Shown here piece by piece: positions 1 through 13,796 of a DNA stretch of 14,564 bases. The position numbers and the translations under genes are program-made. The stretch's first letter is position 1. Every line of letters begins with the position of its first letter. Source of the stretch: Hyphomicrobiales bacterium (GTDB lineage Bacteria; Pseudomonadota; Alphaproteobacteria; Rhizobiales; Xanthobacteraceae); NCBI GenBank assembly GCA_016201085.1, contig JACQDO010000331.1, positions 1-14,564 on the forward strand, written 5' to 3'. Below the pieces are notes generated by a model, which made no database searches, was not told where the DNA came from, and saw only the letters and a list, made by a program, of their open reading frames with translations.

Positions 1-3000
1 CCGTCGTTTTGACCCCTGTTGTAGTAGGCTCTGCCGCGGTTGGTGAAAGCCTCTGCATCATTCGGGTTGAGCGTGATCGCCTGGTCGAAATCCTGGATGG
101 CGGTGTCGTAGCGGCTCTTTTTGGCGTAAGTGGTCCCACGGTTGTAAAAGGCGTCGCCGTAACTCGGGTTCAGCTTGATCGCCTGGTCGAAATCCTGAAT
201 GGCGCGGTCGTATTGTTCCTTGGAAAGGTAGGCGTTGCCGCGGCTGTTGATAGCCCGGGCATCGTTCGGGTTTAGCTTGATGGCCTCGTCGAAATCCTGG
301 ATGGCGCGGTCGATATCGCCTTTGTTGCGATAGGCGAAGCCTCGGTTGTTGTAGGCTTGGGCGTTTTTTGCATCGAGTTGAATTGCCTGATTCAGGTCCG
401 CTATGCTGCGATCGGTCTCGCCCTTGGCCCCATAGGCAATAGCGCGGTCGTTGAACGCGATGGCGAGTTTTGGATCGAGCCGGATGGTCCGATCGAAGTC
501 TTCGATGGCGCGATCGATCTCGCCCTTATTGCGATAGCAGAGGCCACGATTGTTGAGCGCCAAGACATTATTGGGATTGAGCCGGACCGCGTGGCTGAAG
601 TCGGCAATAGCGCGGTCGTAGTCGTTTTTGTTGCGATAGGACAGGCCCCGACCGTAATAACCAAGCTCATCGTTGGGATTCAACTTGATCGCCCGGTCGA
701 AGTCGGCGACGGCGCGATCGTAGTCGCGCTTTTCGTAATAAGCGCTGCCGCGCTGGTAGAAGCCGATTGCAAATGTTTGGTCGAGCTGCAGCGCCTGGCC
801 GAAATCCGCTATCGCCCGATCTATGTCGCCCCTTTTCCGGTAAGCGACGCCCCGATTGTATAAAACATGGGCATTCTTTGGATCGCGCTTGGCTGCTTGG
901 TCGAAGTCCGCGATCGCGCGATCATTGTTGTCTTTCACTCCGTAGGCGAGAGCGCGAGCATAGTAGGCGGCCGCATCGTCCGGGTTGAGCTTGATCGCCT
1001 GATCGAAATCGGCGATGGCGCGGTCGTAATTTTGCTTAGAGGCGTACGCATTGCCGCGATTATACAGCGCGGCGGCGGAGTTGGCATTGAGCTTGATCGC
1101 CTGGTCGAAATTCTGGATCGCGCCGTCGATATCGTTCTTGTCGCGGAATGCCAGGCCGCGATTGTAGAAAGCCAGCGCATTTGCAGGATCGAGCCCCGCC
1201 GCACGGTCGAAATCCGCGACGGCCCGGTCGGTCTCGCCCTTAAACGCGTAGGCAACGCCGCGGTTGTTGAAGGCAAACGCGTAATTTGGATTTAATTGCA
1301 GCGCCCGGTCGAAGTCCGCGATCGCGCGATCATAGTCGCGCCGCTTGATATAAGCAGTGGCGCGGTTGTTGTACGCCGTTGTATCCGTCGGCTGAAGCTT
1401 AAGGGCGCGGTCGAAGTCCTGAATCGCCCGGCCATAGTCGTGCTTGTCGTAATAGCTGTTCCCGCGGTTATAGAAAGCGAGTGCGTAGCGAGGCTCCAGC
1501 TTGATCGCCGAATCGAAGTCCGCGATGGCGCGGTCCAATTGCCCCTTTGCGGCGTAAGAGATGCCCCGGTTGCCGAATGCCGGAGCGTATCGCAAGTCGG
1601 CCTGAATCGCCTGATCAAAATCGGCAATGGCACGATCGAGATCGCCCTTTAAGACAAACACAATCCCCCGATCGTTGAATGAGATCGGGTAATCCGAATT
1701 GAGCTTGATGGCCTCGCTCAGGTCCGCGATCGCCCGATCGTATTCACGCCTACCGGCGTAAGAATTTCCGCGATTATTGAACGCCAGCGCGATTTTCGGA
1801 TTCAGCTTGATCGATTGGTCAAAATCGGCAATGGCACGCGCATAATCGCGCTTCTCTTGATAGGCGGTGCCGCGATTGTAAAAAGCGAAAGCGTTTTTCG
1901 GCTCCAGGCGGATCGTTTGGTCAAGATCGGCAATGGCGCGATCGTAATCCTGCATTTCGTAGCGCGCGATGGCGCGGTCGTAATATGACTTGGCATAATT
2001 CTGGTTGAGCTTGATCGCCTGGTCGAAATCGGCGATGGCGTGTTGATAATTGGCTTTCCGATAATAAGCGTTTGCGCGGTGGTGAAATGCCAGGAAATCC
2101 GCCGCGTTGATCTTGATCGCCTGATCGAAATCCGCGATGGCGCCGTCGTACTGCCGCCTTGATACGAAGGCGACGCCGCGGTCGATGAAAGCGAGCGCAA
2201 AGCTTGGGCTGACCTTGAGTGCGCCCCTCGCCTCGACGTCGGCGCGATCGTAGCCGCGCTGGTTTCTTGCCTCGTCGACGCGAGCCGCAATGGTGTAATT
2301 GGTATCGATCTTCGCCAACTGTCCGAAATCCGCGATCGCGCTCTCGTAGTCGTGTTTATCGTAGTAAGCGACACCGCGATCATGGACGGCATAGAAATCC
2401 TTGGCGTTGAGCTTGATCGCCTGGTCGAAATCGGCGATGGCGCGGTCGTATTCGCGCTTGTCGTAGAAAGCATTGCCGCGATTGTAATACGCGACGGAAT
2501 ATGACGGTTTGATCTTTATGGCCTTGTCGAATTCGGCAATGGCACGGTCGAACTCGCCTCGGTTTTGATAGGCGAAACCGCGATTGCTCAACGCGATGAC
2601 GTTGGCCGGGTCCAGCCTGATCGCCTGGTCGAAATCGGCAATGGCAGCGCCGCTATCGCCTTTCATGCCATAGGCAATGCCCCGGTCGTGATAGGCCTGG
2701 ACGTAGCCGGGCTTGATCCGGATCGCCTGGGTGAAATCCGCTATGGCGCGATCGAAACCGCGCCGGTCGGAATAAGTATTGCCACGGTTGTAATAAGCCA
2801 GCGCGTAGTTCGGATCGAGCCGGATGGCCTGATCGTAGTCGGCGATGGCCCGGTCACCGTCTCCCTTGCTGCGTAGTGCGAAGCCGCGGTTGTTATAGGC
2901 GACCGAGAAGTTGGCATTGAGCTTAAGCGCCTGGCTGAAATCGGCGACGGCGCGATCGAAGTCACGCTTGCCGGAATAGGCCAAGCCACGCGCATTATAG

Positions 3001-5267
3001 GCAAGCTCTTGCTTGGGGGCTATTTCGAGCGTCCGATCGAGGTCACGGATAGCTCGGTCATGATCGCTTGCGGCCTCATAAGCTTCGCCCCGATGATACA
3101 GTGCAGCGGCAAACCTGGGATTGAGTTCGATGGCCCGGTCAAAGTCAGCGATGGCGCGTTTGATCTCGCCCTTGTTGCGCAAGGCCACGCCGCGACTGTC
3201 TAGCGCGCTATCGAAATCCGGCTTGGCCTTGATGGCCCGGTCGTAATCGGCGATGGCGCGATCGAGCTCGCCCTTCTCCTGGAAGATGGCCCCGCGGTTG
3301 TGCAGCGCCGCCGCATAGTTTGGATTGATCGTGATCGCCTGGTCGAAGTCGGAGACTGCCCGATTCATGTTGCCTTGATTGCGGTAGACAATACCGCGGC
3401 TATTGTAGGGACCTTCGAAGTTTGGATTGAAAATGATGGCTTGATCGAAATCCTTCAGCGCCAGCCCGAACCGGCCCATGGCGGCATGGGTGTTGCCGCG
3501 CTCGACGAAGGCGCTGGCCGATCCCGGATCGAGCTTGATCGCCTGATCGTAGTCATGGATCGCGCGTACGTAGTCGCCTTTCTCACGCAATGCATTGCCG
3601 CGATCGATGAAGGCGGCCGTCGATTTAGCATCCAGCCGGATGGCCTGATCGAAATCGGCGATGGCGCGCTCTAACTCGCCTTTCTTGCGATACAGCAGAC
3701 CGCGGGCATGCACCACGGCAGCATCTTGCGGTTCAAGCCGGACGGCCCGCTCGAAGTCCTTCGCCGCGCCATCGTAATCGTGCCTCTCGTAGAACACGTC
3801 CCCGCGATTGTAATAAGCCTTGCCATAATCGGAATTGAGTTCGATGGCCACGTTGAAATCGCGCAAGGCGCTGGCCGCGTCACCCCGGCGGCGATAGGCG
3901 AGCCCCCGACTGTTATAGGCCCGTGCGTACTTAGGATCGTGTTCGATGGTCCTGGTAAAATCCTGCACCGCGCGTTCGAAGTCGCCCTTGCCGATATAAG
4001 CCAGCCCGCGGCTGTAGAATGCCAGTGCATCATTCGGGTCGATCTGTATGGCCCGGTCGAAATCGGCAATGGCACGGTCGTAGTCGCGCTTATTCCGGTA
4101 GACCTCGCCCCGAGACTTCAACGCGACAGAGAATTTGGCATCGAGCCTGATCGCTTGATCGAGGTCGGCGATGGCGCGGTCAAGCTCGCCTTTGGCCTCG
4201 TACGCCAAGCCGCGGATACCGAACGCCGGGGCGAAGTCCGGCTTGACGTTGATCGCCAAATTCAAGTCGCGGATGGCACGATCATAGTCGTGCTTAAGGT
4301 AATAGACCTTGCCGCGCTCGTAATAGGCTTGCGGATTGTTGGCTTCCAGGCCAACCGCCTTATCAAAATCCGCCAACGCACGCTCGATATTGTCTTTGTC
4401 GCGGTATGCCAGACCGCGCTGATAAAGCGCGAGCGCTGGGCTGGTATCCAAGCGGATTGCCTCGGTGAAGTCCGCGATGGCGCGGTCCTCATCGCCTTTC
4501 GCGCGATAGGCAAGGCCGCGGTTGTAGTATGCGAGCACATTCTTTCCGTCGAGCTGGATCGCCGCGCCAAAGTCGGCGATGGCGCGATCTGTTTCACCGC
4601 GCGCGCGGTAGGTAAGTCCACGTTGGTAAAGAGCGAGCGCATCCTTTGGGACGAGCGTGATCGCCTGGCTAAGATCCCGGAGCGCGCGCTCGTAATCGCG
4701 TTTCTCGTAAGAGGCCAGGCCGCGATTGTAATAGGCCGGCGCATAGCCATTATTGAGACGGATCGCCTGATCGTAATTCTCGATCGCGCGATCGTAATCG
4801 CGTTTATCGTAATAAGCGCTGCCGCGATTGTAGAAAGCGAGCGCGTTGTTGCGGTCAAGCTGGATAGCCGCGCTGAAATCGGCGATGGCGCGATCGGTTT
4901 CGCCGCGCGCGCGGTAGGCGAAGCCACGGTTATTATAGGCGGAGGCATCGCGCGGATCGAGCAGGATCGCGCGATCGAAGTCGGCGATGGCGCGGGCGGC
5001 GTCGCCCTTGTTTGCATAGGCAATGCCGCGATCGATAAGCGCCTGCACGAATTGCGGGTCGATCCCGATCGCTCGGTCGAACTCTTGAATTGCACTTTCG
5101 ATGTCGCCCCGCTCACGCGCGGTGAGACCGTGGGCATGCAGCGCGACGGCATCCTTAGCGCCTTGCTGCGGCTGCTGCTCGGTTTGCGCAAGCGCCGAGG
5201 CGGCTGTCAGCAGCATGACCGCCGACATCAGCCCCCTACTCGTGACGCGCAGCCAGCTCCCCACCAT
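1..5267 (-). CDS. Giant exported TPR-repeat protein, 3' end beyond window
   Basis: The frame starts at ATG 5265-5267 and stays open to the left edge: 1755 complete codons without a stop, so the C-terminus is missing. AAGGG lies five bases before the ATG. The N-terminus is an export signal: residues 1-13 carry two arginines, then a hydrophobic stretch (LMSAVMLLTAASALA) and a likely signal peptidase I site after Ala27. From about residue 40 the protein is continuous 34-residue TPR units resembling AYYNRGLAYRNKGDYDRAIA followed by DFDQAIRLDP, about 50 in view, with no other domain visible. TPR solenoids are protein-protein interaction scaffolds, so a periplasmic or surface scaffold is inferred; no partner or pathway can be assigned. 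It diverges from an L,D-transpeptidase gene, which hints at a cell-envelope role. An internal start at Met14 is possible but would lose the basic part of the signal peptide. Confidence 0.93.
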   Translation of the reverse strand, partial: MVGSWLRVTSRGLMSAVMLLTAASALAQTEQQPQQGAKDAVALHAHGLTARERGDIESAIQEFDRAIGIDPQFVQALIDRGIAYANKGDAARAIADFDRAILLDPRDASAYNNRGFAYRARGETDRAIADFSAAIQLDRNNALAFYNRGSAYYDKRDYDRAIENYDQAIRLNNGYAPAYYNRGLASYEKRDYERALRDLSQAITLVPKDALALYQRGLTYRARGETDRAIADFGAAIQLDGKNVLAYYNRGLAYRAKGDEDRAIADFTEAIRLDTSPALALYQRGLAYRDKDNIERALADFDKAVGLEANNPQAYYERGKVYYLKHDYDRAIRDLNLAINVKPDFAPAFGIRGLAYEAKGELDRAIADLDQAIRLDAKFSVALKSRGEVYRNKRDYDRAIADFDRAIQIDPNDALAFYSRGLAYIGKGDFERAVQDFTRTIEHDPKYARAYNSRGLAYRRRGDAASALRDFNVAIELNSDYGKAYYNRGDVFYERHDYDGAAKDFERAVRLEPQDAAVVHARGLLYRKKGELERAIADFDQAIRLDAKSTAAFIDRGNALREKGDYVRAIHDYDQAIKLDPGSASAFVERGNTHAAMGRFGLALKDFDQAIIFNPNFEGPYNSRGIVYRNQGNMNRAVSDFDQAITINPNYAAALHNRGAIFQEKGELDRAIADYDRAIKAKPDFDSALDSRGVALRNKGEIKRAIADFDRAIELNPRFAAALYHRGEAYEAASDHDRAIRDLDRTLEIAPKQELAYNARGLAYSGKRDFDRAVADFSQALKLNANFSVAYNNRGFALRSKGDGDRAIADYDQAIRLDPNYALAYYNRGNTYSDRRGFDRAIADFTQAIRIKPGYVQAYHDRGIAYGMKGDSGAAIADFDQAIRLDPANVIALSNRGFAYQNRGEFDRAIAEFDKAIKIKPSYSVAYYNRGNAFYDKREYDRAIADFDQAIKLNAKDFYAVHDRGVAYYDKHDYESAIADFGQLAKIDTNYTIAARVDEARNQRGYDRADVEARGALKVSPSFALAFIDRGVAFVSRRQYDGAIADFDQAIKINAADFLAFHHRANAYYRKANYQHAIADFDQAIKLNQNYAKSYYDRAIARYEMQDYDRAIADLDQTIRLEPKNAFAFYNRGTAYQEKRDYARAIADFDQSIKLNPKIALAFNNRGNSYAGRREYDRAIADLSEAIKLNSDYPISFNDRGIVFVLKGDLDRAIADFDQAIQADLRYAPAFGNRGISYAAKGQLDRAIADFDSAIKLEPRYALAFYNRGNSYYDKHDYGRAIQDFDRALKLQPTDTTAYNNRATAYIKRRDYDRAIADFDRALQLNPNYAFAFNNRGVAYAFKGETDRAVADFDRAAGLDPANALAFYNRGLAFRDKNDIDGAIQNFDQAIKLNANSAAALYNRGNAYASKQNYDRAIADFDQAIKLNPDDAAAYYARALAYGVKDNNDRAIADFDQAAKRDPKNAHVLYNRGVAYRKRGDIDRAIADFGQALQLDQTFAIGFYQRGSAYYEKRDYDRAVADFDRAIKLNPNDELGYYGRGLSYRNKNDYDRAIADFSHAVRLNPNNVLALNNRGLCYRNKGEIDRAIEDFDRTIRLDPKLAIAFNDRAIAYGAKGETDRSIADLNQAIQLDAKNAQAYNNRGFAYRNKGDIDRAIQDFDEAIKLNPNDARAINSRGNAYLSKEQYDRAIQDFDQAIKLNPSYGDAFYNRGTTYAKKSRYDTAIQDFDQAITLNPNDAEAFTNRGRAYYNRGQND
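3..5150 (-). repeat. Tandem 102-bp repeat array encoding about 50 TPR units
   Basis: Related 102-bp units run without a break through the coding region; each encodes one 34-residue TPR. The anchor reading GATGGCGCGGTCG-like on the plus strand recurs every 102 bp; the matching segment starts near 79, 181, 283, 385 and 487, and the same phase holds beyond 4900. Copies differ widely in sequence, so this is an old diversified array rather than a recent minisatellite. A higher-order relation is visible: the segments at 4585 and 4891 are nearly identical and lie 306 bp (three units) apart, suggesting block duplication. One unit near 2206-2300 is degenerate but keeps the spacing. Confidence 0.93.
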
Positions 5268-5560
5268 GTTTGCCCTTGCAGGCTTGCGCGCGGACCGACG
5301 GCAAGCATTATCCCCAGAGCCACAATTAGAGAGATGCGAGACAAGCGAAATAGTTCCATTCACCGGCACCAAAATTAACATTATCTGCGGCGGTTGCGCG
5401 AGATTTTCCGATCGATGAATAAGCGCGTCAGAGCAAATAATTACGACCAAGATGGAACTTATTATTCCGCCGTCATGGAACTTATTCGAAGAATTCCTAT
5501 TTACCTTGTTTGACGCACAACAGATTATTAGAAGGTCGTTACACATTGGAGGGATGTGTT
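5268..5560. promoter_or_regulatory. Divergent intergenic region with repeated ATGGAAC boxes
   Basis: This 293-bp gap separates the divergent TPR and transpeptidase genes and is clearly AT-richer than its flanks. The 12-mer ATGGAACTTATT occurs twice in direct orientation, at 5452-5463 and 5475-5486, 23 bp apart (about two helical turns). The core appears inverted as GTTCCAT at 5353-5359. The spacing suits side-by-side binding of a regulator, so an operator controlling one or both genes is inferred. I could not find a convincing sigma-70 promoter on either strand: a GATAAT lies about 40 bases upstream of the TPR start but has no good -35 partner. Confidence 0.4.
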
Positions 5561-8627: not shown

Positions 8628-9050
8628 TGGTCACCCCCATATGTCCCCAAAATGGAGCACACGCAGACGCAACCAACGATCGGATGAAGCCACCTGCAAT
8701 ATCACGCGCGTCGCGCCGGCGCGATAGGCCCGCTCGGCCTGCAACACTACATTCACGGAACCAGCGCTGCGCTGTCCGCAGTCAAATCAATCGCATCCGT
8801 CTAGGATAGTAGCTGATTCGCGGTCCCGTAAAGACGGTGCAATACGATATTGGCGGGACACGCCCGGAACTTCGCGCCATGCCCATGGCCTCCTTGACCC
8901 TCTCGTCGACCGTCAGGGGCGGTTCGCTCGTACAGCCGACATTTTGTCCAGATCGGGTTCGATTGGGAGGTTTTCAACCGCACCGGCAATGACGATCCAT
9001 CGAATTCAGCCGTTACACCGGCCCAGGCGTCATCGCGCGCTCCTTGTAAC
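8628..9050. other. Intergenic region between selC and the barrel gene, no confident gene
   Basis: About 420 bases without a gene I can support. It should hold the barrel gene's promoter and the end of the sel transcript. Visible items: a perfect 14-bp palindrome TCGCGCCGGCGCGA at 8711-8724; an AGGAG site followed by a six-codon frame at 9013-9033 (-), whose ATG overlaps the selB stop; and a frame at 8782-9000 (-) interrupted by one UGA. None has enough support to be called a gene. Confidence 0.5.
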
Positions 9051-11105
9051 TGGCGGAAGAGAGAGGGAGTCGAACCCACCAAGGACCGGCTCGCGGCCCC
9101 TCCCGGATTTGAAGTCCGGCCGCCCCACCGGGGACGATTCTCTTCCAGATTGTTGCTGATCGCGGCTCGCCGCTTCCGCCGAGTTGCGGAACAGATCAAG
9201 CCGATGCTTGTTGATGCGCCGCAGATCGCCGCGACGCAGCGTGACACCATGGCGGTCGAAGAATTCGAGGATCTGAATGGCGACCTTGCGGCCATTGTCC
9301 ACCCGATCACGAAATTGCGCCGCGGAGAATTGTCCGTCGGTCGCCGTTGCGGCGAGATCGGCAATGATATCGACCATTTCCGCCACGGTGGCGCGCAGGA
9401 AGAAATGATCGTGCGAGACCTCGTCGACCTTGCCCATGCGTCCGAGCAATTTAAGCATTCGCCGCACGTCGATCTCGCGCAGTGTCTGTAAAGAGGCGAT
9501 GTCGCGCACGCGCGGCGGCCGGAAGCGCTCGCCCCTGCCGAGCAAGGGAGCGATCTTGTTCCAGGTTTTTTCATCCTCCGGTGTCAAACGAACTTCGTGA
9601 CCGGCGAGCCGCGCCCAGGCGCCGTTCAAAGCAATCTCTTTGCTCTGCACAAGTTCCTGAAGAAACGATAGAAATACCGCTGTCGGCAGCCGCGGCTCAA
9701 GTTGCGACCGCAGCCGTTCAAGACCGATGCCGGCCAGATCGGGATTGTCGGCATGGAAGCATTGCAGCGTCGCCAACAGGCTGCGCTTGAAGCGCAGCCA
9801 CACCGGAGCCGAGAGCGCGAAAACGCGGTCGTCCGCTATTGCCTTGGTCACGCCAGGGCGCTCGCCGATTGTTCGCGCCCGGTCTTCGCTCAATGCGCGG
9901 TCACGGGCGAAGGCAGACAGATCGACATGATACGGAGAAATATCGAGCAAAGCCGCGAGCGCCTGCTCGGCATCGCGAATGGCATGAGCCCGCAACTGGG
10001 CGAGACGTTCCGGCGTGCGGCGCTTGCGGGCCGGCGCGCGCAGATCGAGAAATTCTCCGCCGCCGATGGTGCGTTGCGCCGTGGTGTCGCGCAGCACGAA
10101 GCGGTCGCCTTCCGCCGCCGCGATCGGCCGATCGAGCACGAGCTGCACCGGCGCCTCACCGCCGGGCGAGATCGGCGCGTCGCCCAGCAGCACAATGCGG
10201 GCGCCAACCTCGGTCGCGGCATGATGCAGGCGGGCCGGCATCCACTGGCTCACCGGCTTCGGCTCGGTCGCGAGCAGGCGCAAGGTTGCGTCGATACGAT
10301 CAGTCGGTGCGTGCAGAGCGGGATCGAGCACCATCTGGCCGCGCGCGATGGCGTCCTTGGTCACACCCTCGCCCGCCAGATTGAGCGCGCAACGCTGCCC
10401 CGCCACGCCCCGCTCGGTCGGCCGGTTCTGCGCATGGATCGAGCGCACCCGCGCAACCAGGCCGGACGGGCTGATCGTGACGCGGTCGCCGGTCGAGACC
10501 GCGCCCGACAGCACGGTACCGGTCACCACCGTACCGGCGCCCGGAAGCGTGAATGAGCGGTCGACGGCAAGCCGAAAGCGCTCGGAAGCGGCGCGCGCTT
10601 GAATCGTGTTGGCGGCATCGAACAGCCGGCCGCGCAATTCATCGGTGCCGGCGCCGCTCACGGTCGAAACCGGAACGATCTCGGCGCCAGCAAGGTTCGT
10701 ACCTTCCAGCAACTGCGCGATCTCAGTCGTGACTTTCGCGAGTTGTTCGGTGGCGACCAGATCGGCTTTGGTGAGCGCGACGATGCCGCGGTCTATCCCG
10801 AGCAGATTAACGATCGCCAGGTGTTCGCGGGTCTGCGGCATGACGCCGTCATCGGCGGCAATCGCCAGCAGCACGAAATCGATGCCGGTGGCGCCGGCCA
10901 GCATATTGTGCACGAACTTCTCGTGGCCGGGCACATCGACGAAGCCGAGTACCGCGCCGTCCGGCGCCGCCAGATAGGCGAAGCCGAGATCGATGGAAAT
11001 GCCGCGCGCCTTCTCTTCCTTGAGGCGGTCGGTGTCGACGCCGGTGAGCGCGCGCACCAGCGCGGTCTTGCCGTGATCGATGTGGCCGGCGGTGCCGACG
11101 ATCAT
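9030..11105 (-). CDS. selB: Selenocysteine-specific elongation factor SelB
   Basis: SelB is the GTPase that carries Sec-tRNA to the ribosome at UGA codons followed by a SECIS hairpin. Residues 1-14 read MIVGTAGHIDHGKT (P-loop). Further motifs are the switch region RGISIDLGFAYL (about 35-45), DVPGHE (57-62) and TKAD (112-115), followed by EF-Tu-like beta-barrel domains and the C-terminal winged-helix region that binds SECIS, ending near GRKVAIQILEFFDRHGV. The ATG at 11105 overlaps the selA stop (ATGA), so the two are translationally coupled; a longer reading to 11174 would run into selA and is unlikely. Oddity: after about residue 650, where the family normally ends, the frame has no stop and reads through the whole selC tRNA gene (codons 654-685) to a TGA at 9030-9032, giving 691 residues in total. 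Confidence 0.93.
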   Translation of the reverse strand: MIVGTAGHIDHGKTALVRALTGVDTDRLKEEKARGISIDLGFAYLAAPDGAVLGFVDVPGHEKFVHNMLAGATGIDFVLLAIAADDGVMPQTREHLAIVNLLGIDRGIVALTKADLVATEQLAKVTTEIAQLLEGTNLAGAEIVPVSTVSGAGTDELRGRLFDAANTIQARAASERFRLAVDRSFTLPGAGTVVTGTVLSGAVSTGDRVTISPSGLVARVRSIHAQNRPTERGVAGQRCALNLAGEGVTKDAIARGQMVLDPALHAPTDRIDATLRLLATEPKPVSQWMPARLHHAATEVGARIVLLGDAPISPGGEAPVQLVLDRPIAAAEGDRFVLRDTTAQRTIGGGEFLDLRAPARKRRTPERLAQLRAHAIRDAEQALAALLDISPYHVDLSAFARDRALSEDRARTIGERPGVTKAIADDRVFALSAPVWLRFKRSLLATLQCFHADNPDLAGIGLERLRSQLEPRLPTAVFLSFLQELVQSKEIALNGAWARLAGHEVRLTPEDEKTWNKIAPLLGRGERFRPPRVRDIASLQTLREIDVRRMLKLLGRMGKVDEVSHDHFFLRATVAEMVDIIADLAATATDGQFSAAQFRDRVDNGRKVAIQILEFFDRHGVTLRRGDLRRINKHRLDLFRNSAEAASRDQQQSGRESSPVGRPDFKSGRGREPVLGGFDSLSLPPVTRSAR
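9051..9146 (-). tRNA. selC: tRNA-Sec (anticodon UCA), CCA encoded
   Basis: The minus strand from 9146 begins GGAAGAGA, which pairs with TCTCTTCC (9055-9062) to give the 8-bp acceptor stem typical of bacterial tRNA-Sec; discriminator G and CCA follow. The D arm is GUCCC-CGGU-GGGGC. The anticodon stem CCGGA/UCCGG encloses CUUCAAA, with anticodon UCA at 9110-9112. A long variable arm (GGGCCG/CGGUCC) and a T loop UUCGACU complete the structure. At 96 bases with CCA, and with the same layout as E. coli selC, the identity is clear. Oddities: the T stem GUGGG/CCCUC has a U-U mismatch (9078 against 9064), and the gene lies entirely inside the open frame of selB on the same strand. Confidence 0.95.
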
Positions 11106-12313
11106 TTTACCGGTTCTCCCGCGAGTTCGAGCGTTGCAAGATTGGCGACAAAGCCTGTCTCGTCGTCGAGGCAACGCAAATCGAGGATCAGCGCGTTGTC
11201 GTCGATACGGCCGATGACGGGAACCGGAAGCTGTCGCAGCGCGATCGAGAGCGCCGCGAGCATGCGACCGCCACGTTTGGCGCCGCGAGCCCGAATGGCG
11301 AGGCCAGCGCTTGGGACCTTCGCCATCGGCAAGGCACCGGAGCCGATTTGGCTGGCGCAGGCGGCCACCGCCACCTCGAAGCCGCTGCCGAATTTTTCCG
11401 CGACCACCGGCAACAGCCGGCGCGCCGCCGCTTCGACCTGCTTCTTCGGCCGTGCCAGCAGCCGCATAGTCGGTAGCCGTTCGGCCAACCGGTCTGGGTC
11501 GCGATAAAGTTTAAGCGTCGCTTCCAGCGCGGCCAGCCGAATCTTGCCGAGGTCGATGACCAGCGGGACCTTGCGCTCATGCGCCAGCGCCGCGAGTTCG
11601 CGCGCGCCGACCTCCTTGGTGAAGCCTTCGATGCGGTAATTGGACGTGTGCACCTTGAGCACCAGCCCGGTCTTCGGCCCGATGGCGCCGACATAGTCCT
11701 TCTTGTGCGTGCGGTTGGTGGTGCCGACTTCGGTGAGCTTGGCGCCGGCGCGGCTCATGATCTCGGGCATGCGGAAGGCGCCGCCGATCTCGATCGACTC
11801 GCCGCGCGAGACGATGGCCTCGCGCCCCTTGGCCAGCGTATTGAGCACCAGCAGCACCGCGGCGGCATTGTTGTTGACCACCGTGGCATCCTCCGCGCCG
11901 GTCAATTCGCACAGCAGATCGCGCACCAGATCGTCGCGGTCGCCGCGCTTGCCGTCGCCGAGATCGAATTCGAGCGCGACCGCGTTGCGCATCGCCATAG
12001 TGGCAGCCTCGACCGCGGCTTCGGCGAGCAGCGCGCGGCCGAGATTGGTATGCAGCACGGTGCCGGTGAGGTTGAAGACAGGGCGTAGATTGGGCTGCGC
12101 TTGCGCCTCCAGCCGCATCCGCGCCGCGGTCGCAACCTCACTCGCGTCGCTGGGCGCGATCCCTACAACGCGCGACGCCGCCAGCGCCGAGCGCACGGCT
12201 GCAACGGCGGCCGGACGGCCAAACCGCTCGATCACACCCGCCGCAAGCGGCGTCCGCAGCACCTCGTCGACCGACGGTAGATTGCGTAATGCGGCGGGTG
12301 TCGATTTTTGCAT
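11102..12313 (-). CDS. selA: L-seryl-tRNA(Sec) selenium transferase SelA, lacking the PLP-lysine segment
   Basis: SelA is a PLP enzyme that converts Ser-tRNA(Sec) to Sec-tRNA(Sec) with selenophosphate. The N-terminal domain (LPSVDEVL) and core motifs NLTGTVLHTNLGRALL, NNNAAAVLLVL, SRGE, EIGGAFRMPEIM, VGTTNRTH and KVHTSNY are intact, as is the C-terminal part (SQIGSGALP, LPVPVIGRI). However, after VPLVIDLG (Gly256) the sequence goes straight to KIRLAALEATLKLY (Lys257), at 11545/11546. In E. coli SelA these two points are separated by about 67 residues, including the FSGDKLLGGPQAG motif with the PLP-binding lysine. The length of 403, against 463 in E. coli, fits. As read, the product cannot be an active selenium transferase. 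The ATG at 12313 has GAGG eight bases upstream; a start at 12394 would add a tail not typical of the family. Its stop overlaps the selB start. Confidence 0.9.
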   Translation of the reverse strand: MQKSTPAALRNLPSVDEVLRTPLAAGVIERFGRPAAVAAVRSALAASRVVGIAPSDASEVATAARMRLEAQAQPNLRPVFNLTGTVLHTNLGRALLAEAAVEAATMAMRNAVALEFDLGDGKRGDRDDLVRDLLCELTGAEDATVVNNNAAAVLLVLNTLAKGREAIVSRGESIEIGGAFRMPEIMSRAGAKLTEVGTTNRTHKKDYVGAIGPKTGLVLKVHTSNYRIEGFTKEVGARELAALAHERKVPLVIDLGKIRLAALEATLKLYRDPDRLAERLPTMRLLARPKKQVEAAARRLLPVVAEKFGSGFEVAVAACASQIGSGALPMAKVPSAGLAIRARGAKRGGRMLAALSIALRQLPVPVIGRIDDNALILDLRCLDDETGFVANLATLELAGEPVK

Positions 12314-12323
12314 CGCCACCGCC

Positions 12324-12401
12324 TCAATAACCGAGCGGAAACGGATTGACGCCGCCGACCGCGCTTGGGTCCGGCAGCAGGTCGCGTATATCACGGCGCA
12401 T
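12324..12401 (-). pseudogene. 25-codon frame before selA, possible FdhE C-terminal remnant
   Basis: An ATG at 12401 opens 25 codons ending VGGVNPFPLGY, with its TGA (12324-12326) overlapping the GAGG ribosome binding site of selA. The ending resembles the C-terminus of the formate dehydrogenase accessory protein FdhE (E. coli ends near INPFLFPGE), and fdhE often sits near sel and fdh genes. In-frame stops lie immediately upstream and I see no FdhE zinc-ribbon cysteines further up. It may be a decayed end of fdhE, a short leader peptide coupled to selA, or chance. The FdhE link rests on memory of the family only. Confidence 0.3.
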
Positions 12402-12737
12402 CACTCAACCTCACGAACCACACGGGCCACGTGGTCTGTTGGGACCGGCGCCCGCTGCGCAGCGGTCGGCCGTCCGTTGTTATTCAAGCACGCCTGTCTT
12501 GCCGCCGGCGAGCGCTCGCAACCCTATGCGGTGGCGCCGCCAATCAAAGGCACGTTAGCACATTGAACGGCGGCGATATCAGCCAGGATGCCGCATTCTG
12601 GCCGGGTGTGCCGCAAGACTACGCAACCGGATGTCACGAAGGCGGCCTTGGCTTTTGCAGCGGCGTGGCTGCTCTCAGTTCCCAGACCGGCCGTCACGAG
12701 AGTAGGATGGCCAAGTAGAGCGTGAGGGAGGATTGCA
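12402..12737. other. Divergent selA/selD intergenic region
   Basis: 336 bases between the selA-side frame and selD. The frames present lack recognisable domains. On the plus strand 12582-12602 can form a hairpin (8-bp stem GCCAGGAT/ATTCTGGC with one G-U pair, five-base loop) in the probable selD leader; no T-run follows, so it is not a terminator. Promoters for selA (-) and selD (+) should lie here, but none is convincing by eye. Confidence 0.4.
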
Positions 12738-13796
12738 GTGAATGTCCCCATCGTGCGACTGACGAGCCTCGCCCACGGCGGCGGCTGCGGCTGCGGCTGC
12801 AAGCTGGCGCCTTCGGTGCTGCAACAGCTTCTAGCCGACCAAGCGCTGGCCGCGCCTTATCGCCAACTGCTGGTCGGCACCGAGACCGGCGACGACGCCG
12901 CCGTGTGGCAGCTCGACGACGGCACTTGCGTAATCGCGACCACCGATTTCTTCATGCCGGTCGTGGACGATCCCTACGATTTCGGCCGGATTGCCGCGAC
13001 CAATGCCATCTCCGATGTCTATGCGATGGGTGGCAAGCCGATTTTCGCCTTGGCGATTTTAGGAATCCCGATCGACAAGATTTCACCTGAAACAGTGCGC
13101 GAAATTCTCAAAGGCGGCGCGGCGGTTTGCGCCTCCGCCGGCATTCCGGTCGCCGGCGGGCACTCCATCGACTCGCCTGAGCCGATCTACGGTCTTGCCG
13201 TCATCGGTATTTGCAACACGAATGAGGTGCGGCGCAATTCCGATGCGAAGCCTGGCGATGCCATCATCCTGACCAAGCCGCTCGGTGTCGGCATCTACTC
13301 GGCTGCGATCAAGAAAGGCGCGCTGTCCGGCGCCGGGTACGCGGACATGATCGCCACGACCACCCTGCTCAATCGGGTCGGCGCCGAGCTGGCGACGGAT
13401 TCCGCGGTCCATGCGATCACGGACGTGACCGGGTTCGGGCTGCTCGGGCACGGGTTGGAAATGGCGCGTGGCTCGAAGCTGACCGTCGTTGTGCGTGCCA
13501 ACGATCTGCCGCTCTTGCCGGAAGCCGCGTCGCTGGCCCAGCAGGGCTTTGTCACTGGTGCGTCAATTCGGAATTGGGCAAGTTACGGCGGCGACGTGGT
13601 GCTGCCGGCCGGACTTCCCGACTGGCGACGCCATCTGCTGACCGATCCGCAAACCTCCGGCGGGCTGTTGATCTCCTGCGCGCCCGAGCGAGCCGATGCG
13701 ATCGTGCAGACGGTTACCGCCGCCGGCTATCCCGCCGCGCGCGTGATCGGGCGCGCAGTGGCAGGCGCGCCGGAAATTCGGGTGGAGACCGACTGA
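12738..13796 (+). CDS. selD: Selenophosphate synthase SelD
   Basis: 352 residues. SelD makes selenophosphate from selenide and ATP, the selenium donor for SelA and for selenouridine in tRNA. The start is GTG 12738, with GGGAGG six bases upstream. Family hallmarks are a Gly/Cys-rich N-terminus with the catalytic Cys and Lys, [68 protein letters not shown] and [11 protein letters not shown]. Oddity: the motif reads [13 protein letters not shown], whereas E. coli has HGAGCGCKISP. A third GGC-TGC unit (12783-12800) adds two residues and a third Cys (Cys17, 19, 21, Lys22). The catalytic position is Cys, so SelD is not itself a selenoprotein. It ends in TGATAA and diverges from selA. Confidence 0.95.

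What the first reader, a model, noticed from the sequence alone, without database searches (positions are those of the whole stretch)
11530..11560. SelA has an in-frame gap of about 67 residues that removes its PLP lysine
Seen: ...VPLVIDLG is followed directly by KIRLAALEATLKLY. Known: E. coli SelA has about 67 residues between the equivalent points, including FSGDKLLGGPQAG with the PLP-binding lysine. Inference: the enzyme is inactive as encoded, although both flanks are well conserved and the reading frame is kept. With selB, selC and selD still present, this is either a recent loss of Sec synthesis, an assembly deletion, or a SelA that works with a second copy or in another role.
Basis: partly seen in the sequence, partly recalled or inferred. 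Interest (0 to 1): 0.72.

Follow-up and report, generated by a model that had tools for sequence, protein, structure and literature searches.

The report
Selenocysteine operon caught in mid-decay
A bacterium known only from metagenome DNA carries a selenocysteine gene cluster in which the enzyme that makes selenocysteine has lost its catalytic core and usual partner genes are missing or reduced to a scar, which looks like an amino-acid system being lost, although an assembly error at the key spot cannot be ruled out without the raw reads.

Summary
selA (window 11102-12313, minus) lacks exactly 201 nt (67 codons) at 11545/11546, in frame, including the SGDKLLGG lysine segment kept by all 73 named relative loci fetched. 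No second selA and no stray copy of the segment was found in the MAG (88.6% complete). No repeat at the edges would make an assembler drop it.

The new evidence lies next door. In the sister genome and its clade the order is fdnG-fdnH-fdnI-fdhE-selA-sel1-selB-selC, with a UGA codon in fdnG. In the window, fdnGHI are absent from the locus, fdhE is a 25-codon scar behind its conserved 26-nt leader, and sel1 is gone. No FdhE, close FdnI or UGA-containing formate dehydrogenase was found in the MAG; 11 of 13 other genus members with Sec signals have the UGA gene. SelB, SelD and tRNA-Sec look intact, and the rest of selA shows normal constraint.

Best reading: a Sec-decoding trait being lost after its client enzyme, with selA hit recently. 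An assembly error at selA alone remains possible (about 0.2). Three other MAG loci show eroded fdhE beside an intact selA. Trait loss is known; this intermediate is a new example.

The parts
11102..12313 (-). selA with a 67-codon in-frame internal deletion (403 aa; junction at 11545/11546)
11545..11546 (-). deletion junction: codon GGC (Gly of DLG) joined directly to AAG (Lys of KIRLAAL); 201 nt missing
12324..12401 (-). fdhE scar: 25-codon ORF MRRDIRDLLPDPSAVGGVNPFPLGY* keeping an FdhE N-terminal motif (LPDPS) and its C-terminal end
   Evidence: FdhE of the sister is 305 aa
12319..12357 (-). DNA tail of fdhE still in place just 5' of selA (33 of 39 nt identical to sister L164)
12408..12433 (-). 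26-nt leader that precedes fdhE in relatives, 25 of 26 nt identical to L022/L164, L024 and L027
   Evidence: 500 shuffles (score 24, shuffle maximum 16)
9030..11105 (-). selB, start codon overlapping the selA stop (ATGA); ORF runs on through selC, as in relatives; the Sel1-repeat gene that separates selA and selB in the sister is absent
9055..9146 (-). selC, tRNA-Sec (anticodon TCA), full-length match, 73.2 bits
12738..13796 (+). selD, full length, keeps GCGCGCK near the N-terminus

Best explanation
This is the selenocysteine (Sec) gene cluster of an uncultured Pseudolabrys-like alphaproteobacterium that is losing Sec use. Shown by sequence: where its clade has fdnGHI-fdhE-selA-sel1-selB-selC, this locus has no fdnGHI, an fdhE scar, no sel1, and a selA without 67 codons including the PLP lysine. 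Inferred steps: the Sec-containing formate dehydrogenase went first, perhaps covered by the Cys-type formate dehydrogenases still in the MAG. With no known client left, selection on Sec synthesis relaxed, and a clean in-frame deletion then removed the catalytic core of SelA. Such a SelA should not bind PLP as a Schiff base or convert Ser-tRNA-Sec to Sec-tRNA-Sec. SelB, tRNA-Sec and SelD have not yet decayed, so the selA lesion is young. In-frame deletions may be favoured because genes of this tightly packed operon are translationally coupled; that is a guess.
For: Exact 67-codon gap. No other selA found in the MAG. fdhE tail and leader scars in the syntenic place (shuffle control). FdhE found in 12 of 14 genus members tested, not in own or G066. 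Close FdnI in the same 12 of 14. UGA-fdnG in 11 of 13 other genus members (9 of 10, 2 of 3), none in own. No stop codon inside any of the 13 own matches to formate-DH-alph or the 15 to Fdh-alpha, and two own Fdh sites read Cys. The window is sister to L022 (tree support 0.973), and all eight other members of the surrounding clade have sel1. Flanks and selB are under normal constraint (dN/dS 0.11-0.21 for window against L022 and L024, 0.14-0.27 between those two), so the lesion is recent if real. Best predicted models: mean pLDDT 65.6, pTM 0.40 for the deleted protein, 75.6 and 0.61 for the intact sister with the same 32 rows. tRNA-Sec is patchy in the genus, 13 of 43 genomes above 72 bits.
Against: One contig of one MAG and no reads: an artefact at selA alone remains possible. 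The MAG lacks about 11%, so a client gene or second selA may sit in the missing part. Selenoproteins outside the formate dehydrogenase families were not searched. SelB, SelD and tRNA-Sec show no decay. selD does not share the history of selAB (82.8% to G066 but 67.6% to the sister G064), so the cluster may be a mosaic rather than a simple collapse. Loss of fdhE alone does not prove loss of Sec use: L042, L067 and L086 have eroded fdhE with an intact selA. The window looks like a MAG and those three are titled MAGs, so a cause in metagenome assembly is not excluded. The sister also has a match like the own Cys-type gene (G064 C291), so that enzyme is not a new substitute. The two weakest of five models of the intact sister (60.6, 58.5) are no better than those of the deleted protein.
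Confidence: 0.7

Rival explanations
1. Assembly or read artefact: selA is intact in the cell and 201 nt were dropped in this contig; the operon rearrangement is older and unrelated, and Sec decoding still works for some other selenoprotein.
For: Only one contig shows it; no listed relative shares it; flanks and selB show normal constraint; selB, selC and selD are intact.
Against: No repeat joins the edges in relatives: 1 nt in register, longest word 6-8 nt within 40 nt, in 6 of 6 checked; the window's own missing sequence is unknown. Both flanks match the same sister gene at 82-83%, so it is no chimera of two different genes. Two neighbouring operon genes are gone as well: fdhE left a scar, sel1 none that I saw. 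None of 10 ORFs from two other contigs of this genome (10 of 31 listed) had a best model broken into separate stretches.
Confidence: 0.2
2. The shortened SelA is a functional protein with a new role, for example a tRNA-Sec-binding or partner subunit without catalysis.
For: Reading frame kept; N-terminal domain (PF12390) kept; flanks conserved.
Against: No second member of the shape among the proteins listed; two strands next to the PLP lysine are removed and the rest is predicted less well; one third of random deletions keep frame.
Confidence: 0.04
3. A second, complete selA lies in the unassembled 11% of the genome and the window copy is a redundant relic.
For: The genome is 88.57% complete.
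Against: The window copy is the syntenic, operonic one; no fragment of another was found in own. The 10 selA-bearing relatives show one copy each, listed as two pieces because the query has the gap.
Confidence: 0.06

Closest known systems
SelA, L-seryl-tRNA(Sec) selenium transferase (TIGR00474, PF03841/PF12390)
   Same: Over the NCBIfam cut-off (432.1 against 267.9 bits); N-terminal domain and C-terminal part colinear; syntenic with selB-selC
   Different: Lacks the 67 residues with the PLP lysine, so it is a family member by descent but not expected to be an active enzyme
Loss of Sec decoding with surviving selA in Helicobacter pylori/H. acinonychis (PMC4607533; abstract and section 23 read)
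   Same: SelA altered with loss of the Sec trait
   Different: [quoted passage not shown] here the N-terminal domain is kept, the PLP segment is lost, and selB, selC and selD remain
selA-selB-selC operon with neighbouring fdhA, the only selenoprotein gene, in alphaproteobacteria (PMC1794560; passages read)
   Same: Relatives here have this cluster with a UGA fdnG
   Different: In the window the fdn part is gone and fdhE is a scar
selC nested in the selB ORF of Alphaproteobacteria (PMC8124441; abstract and Results read)
   Same: The window's selB ORF runs through selC to 9030; so do 41 of 49 relative loci where both ends were seen, and 4 more overlap it in part
   Different: No difference found

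Membership tests
Active bacterial SelA | Sequence family score (TIGR00474 cut-off) | tested here: met
   432.1 bits against 267.9
Active bacterial SelA | PLP-binding lysine in SGDKLLGG | tested here: not met
   absent; present in 73 of 73 named loci
Active bacterial SelA | N-terminal domain (Pfam Se-cys_synth_N; tRNA-binding according to PMC4607533) | tested here: met
   PF12390, 45.2 bits
Active bacterial SelA | Decamer formation and Sec synthase activity | not testable with these tools
   needs protein
Sec-decoding trait | selB and selC present and intact (called signatures in PMC1273633; only the start of its abstract seen, in the listings) | tested here: met
Sec-decoding trait | selD present and intact | tested here: met
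Sec-decoding trait | At least one UGA-Sec client gene | tested here: inconclusive
   none in the formate dehydrogenase families; other families not searched; genome 88.6% complete
Decaying operon (pseudogene scars) | Remnants of lost genes at syntenic places | tested here: met
   fdhE tail and leader; no remnant of sel1 or fdnGHI recognised
Assembly collapse at a repeat | Direct repeat of about k-mer length at both edges | tested here: not met
   1 nt in register, longest nearby word 6-8 nt, 6 of 6 relatives; own missing sequence unknown

The most novel reading that the evidence does not exclude
The lineage has stopped making Sec but still selects for translation through the wrecked operon into selB and selC: lost genes were cut out only by in-frame or coupling-keeping deletions (fdhE to 25 codons, selA minus 67, sel1 removed so that selA and selB overlap by ATGA; in-frame fdhE joins in L042 and L086). 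That would mean the SelB-tRNA-Sec pair has a use that does not need SelA.
Probability: 0.06. Interest if true: 0.8.

Novelty: new member of a known kind. Interest (0 to 1): 0.42.

Why it matters
How a genome drops an expanded genetic code is mostly inferred from end states. A locus with the client operon erased, its accessory gene a scar and the Sec synthase newly broken, while tRNA-Sec, SelB and SelD are still good, suggests an order of events. L042 (client operon eroded, selA intact) and L086 would be earlier steps of the same path, so a comparative test in this genus (13 of 43 genomes with a clear tRNA-Sec) becomes possible. It also warns that counting selA by family score would wrongly call this genome able to make Sec.

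Tried and rejected
A T-stem mismatch in tRNA-Sec that I suspected (noted) is not a lesion: the same bases occur in relatives. A 'lost stop codon' of selB running into selC is not decay: 45 of 49 relative loci overlap in this way and it is published (PMC8124441). The first SelB comparisons were made in the wrong frame and are void (selB rows); replace them. The first junction search used a region beside the junction and was repeated across it. The first FdhE search of the own genome had no positive control and was repeated with 13 other genomes. A shared selD-next-to-selA arrangement with G066 was considered: no selA or selB piece lies on G066's selD contig, so it was dropped; G066 was not searched for selA. 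The idea that fdhE erosion always goes with selA loss is refuted by L042, L067 and L086. Relaxed selection on selA was tested and not seen: one change at 98 near-invariant columns (L173S); eight relatives have 0-2 at 123-124 columns. Paper searches for a decaying selA: one search listed 8 papers and none. I read parts of four papers, none whole, so I do not claim this is absent from print.

Full report
WHAT WAS CLAIMED AND WHAT IS THERE. The window is the whole of contig C526 of a draft genome (by its look a MAG) of 3.66 Mb in 526 contigs, 88.57% complete, 2.38% contaminated. Its nearest named relatives are Pseudolabrys and other Xanthobacteraceae. selA lies at 11102-12313 on the minus strand and encodes 403 residues. 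Its two halves match SelA models in separate stretches. In 12 of 12 relative loci that I measured (11 distinct contigs) the same points are 201 nt, 67 codons, apart, between DLG and KIRLA or its equivalent. All 73 named loci found keep the lysine segment (72 by motif, L025 with a one-residue variant). In the wider protein search 231 of 234 fetched proteins match the motif; the misses are the window itself, P0210 (lysine kept) and P0230 (segment scrambled).

IS IT THE ONLY SELA? A search of the own genome with the window protein gives one place. A search with the complete sister protein P0002, which includes the missing segment, gives only the two halves in this contig, E up to 1. So no second copy and no orphan fragment was found in the assembly. 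About 11% of the genome is missing.

THE NEIGHBOURHOOD. In the sister genome (G064; its contig C393 is the 18,025-base contig of L022) the order is fdnG with one in-frame TGA, fdnH, fdnI, fdhE, selA, a Sel1-repeat gene, selB. selB runs off the contig; its last residues and selC are at the start of contig C271. selD lies on the other side of fdnG, pointing away. Of the 73 named loci, 51 have an fdhE match within the DNA held upstream of selA, and 48 of these are near full length. Not all of these have sel1: the Microvirga loci, for instance, have selA next to selB. In the window selD (12738-13796, plus) points away from selA (minus), only about 420 bases apart. That gap holds the 26-nt leader that stands just before fdhE in L022, L024 and L027 (25 of 26 identical), then a 25-codon ORF whose end is the fdhE C-terminus (GGVNPFPLGY* against RGAVNPFLLGY*), then selA. 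The leader region scores 24 against the sister's fdhE region; the best of 500 dinucleotide shuffles scores 16. For the whole 124-nt region the figures are 31 and 26. The Sel1 gene (PF08238) is gone and selA and selB overlap as ATGA. No remnant of fdnGHI was recognised between the leader and selD. The window groups with L022 (support 0.973), and all eight other members of the surrounding clade (L022-L027, L029 and L032) have the Sel1 gene, so sel1 was most simply lost on the window's line.

THE CLIENT. FdhE has a match in 12 of 14 genus members tested, all but the own genome and G066. A close FdnI (58% or more) is in the same 12 of 14; the own genome has only 27% matches. A UGA-containing fdnG is found in 9 of 10 selA-bearing genus members (G001 has only an N-terminal piece) and in G062 and G064 but not G066, so 11 of 13. 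The own genome has no stop inside any of its 13 matches to formate-DH-alph or 15 matches to Fdh-alpha. Two of its Fdh sites read Cys (ARICHSTT on C397, TRLCHASS on C381). The sister has a match like the C397 one (C291), so this enzyme is not a new arrival. Passages of PMC1794560 say that the neighbouring fdhA encodes the only selenoprotein in the alphaproteobacteria with this cluster, in the genomes then known. So the known client was not found here, within the limits of an incomplete genome. Other selenoprotein families were not searched. [quoted passage not shown] that caution applies here.

WHAT IS STILL INTACT. tRNA-Sec scores 73.2 bits; five of seven relative loci scanned have one, at 70.7-80.3 bits. 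SelB is 81.5% identical to the sister over 626 residues and has no change at 102 near-invariant columns. SelA outside the gap has one (L173S) at 98; eight relatives have 0-2 at 123-124. dN/dS for window against L022 is 0.175 and 0.114 in the two selA parts and 0.135 in selB; between L022 and L024 it is 0.14, 0.265 and 0.151 (synonymous distances are large, 0.6-1.0). So the selA lesion is recent, or not real. The fdhE scar has changes in its C-terminus, as expected for an older lesion (inference from few residues).

ARTEFACT OR REAL. In six of six relatives the two edges of the gap share one base in register and no word over 8 bases within 40 nt, so a repeat collapse is unlikely. Both flanks match the same sister gene at 82-83%. 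Ten ORFs from two other contigs of the genome (10 of 31 listed) show no split matches to their best models; this is a small control. The strongest argument is that two neighbouring genes of the same operon are gone as well: fdhE with a scar, sel1 without one. None of this replaces reads. Against it, the three eroded relatives below are metagenome assemblies, as the window's genome seems to be.

STRUCTURE. With the same 32 sequences, the best model of the intact sister has mean pLDDT 75.6 and pTM 0.61, that of the window protein 65.6 and 0.40. The five models range from 58.5 to 75.6 and from 59.7 to 65.6, so the weaker ones overlap. In the sister's best model the removed residues hold two strands (284-288, 299-303) on either side of the PLP lysine (291); the strand at 142-146 is no longer predicted in the window protein. 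Both alignments are shallow.

PARALLELS. L042 has fdnG broken by a frameshift and a stop and ending before the Sec codon, only the end of fdnH, and fdnI and fdhE with internal deletions that keep frame, followed by selA, sel1 and selB. L086 has a piece of fdnI fused in frame to pieces of fdhE before selA. L067 has only the end of fdhE, beside another Fdh with an in-frame TGA. selA keeps the lysine segment in all three. So erosion of the fdn-fdhE part is seen elsewhere with selA intact, and the window looks like a later step. It also means fdhE loss alone does not show that Sec use has ended.

COMPARISON WITH WHAT IS KNOWN. In Helicobacter pylori SelA lost its tRNA-binding end and kept PLP binding while the rest of the system vanished (PMC4607533, abstract and section 23). 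The window shows the reverse kind of damage. The nesting of selC in selB is published (PMC8124441, abstract and Results). tRNA-Sec hits above 72 bits occur in 13 of 43 genomes of the genus, own included. In that search 30 of 43 genomes exceed the family cut-off of 47 bits and all 14 control genomes ring, but every other listed hit is at about 55 bits or less; the own one at 47 bits is tRNA-Ser by ARAGORN and I take the rest to be of that kind, unchecked. selA is present in 10 of 35 other same-genus genomes searched.

VERDICT. The finding is real in the sequence and is best explained as part of a decaying Sec operon (0.7). Artefact at selA alone keeps about 0.2.

Noticed in passing
L042 1610-2962: Fdn operon of another Hyphomicrobiales MAG eroded gene by gene (fdnG frameshift and stop, fdnH end only, fdnI and fdhE internally deleted in frame) with selA, sel1 and selB complete downstream.
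   Followed up: partly
L086 2461-2958: One ORF fuses a piece of FdnI with N- and C-terminal pieces of FdhE, just before selA; selD lies divergently upstream, much as in the window.
   Followed up: partly
L067 581-2452 (minus) and 2810-2972: A different formate dehydrogenase with an in-frame TGA at the likely Sec position (CNRT*HAPSVAG) beside a selA that has only the 3' end of fdhE. L064 and L078 also have a minus-strand match to fdnG, not examined.
   Followed up: no
window 12408-12433; L022 2040-2065; L024 1992-2017; L027 2044-2069: A 26-nt sequence (CACGTGGCCCGTGCGGTTCGTGAGGT) identical in three relatives just before fdhE; possible regulatory or ribosome-loading element.
   Followed up: partly
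window 12738-13796: SelD is 82.8% identical to that of G066 but only 67.6% to the sister G064, whereas SelA and SelB are about 82% to G064: selD has another history, or G064's was replaced.
   Followed up: partly
G066 C63 and C39 (L140, L163): Another genus member (74% complete) with tRNA-Sec, part of selB and selD but no FdhE, close FdnI or formate-DH-alph match; its selA was not searched.
   Followed up: partly
window 9030-9215: selB ORF continues through the whole tRNA-Sec gene, as in 41 of 49 relative loci; a published trait (PMC8124441).
   Followed up: yes
protein P0230 (403 aa, contig of 145,537 bases): Another SelA whose SGDKLLGG segment is scrambled, perhaps by two compensating frameshifts; perhaps a sequencing error.
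   Followed up: no
G000 C397:1-927 and C461:1-1869: A Cys-type formate dehydrogenase alpha subunit seems split over two contig ends of the genome, with an FdnI-like gene (27%) after it on C461.
   Followed up: partly
window 1-5400: Many long ORFs on both strands with a repeating pattern; probably a long TPR-repeat gene on the minus strand that runs off the contig (from the look of the sequence, not tested).
   Followed up: no
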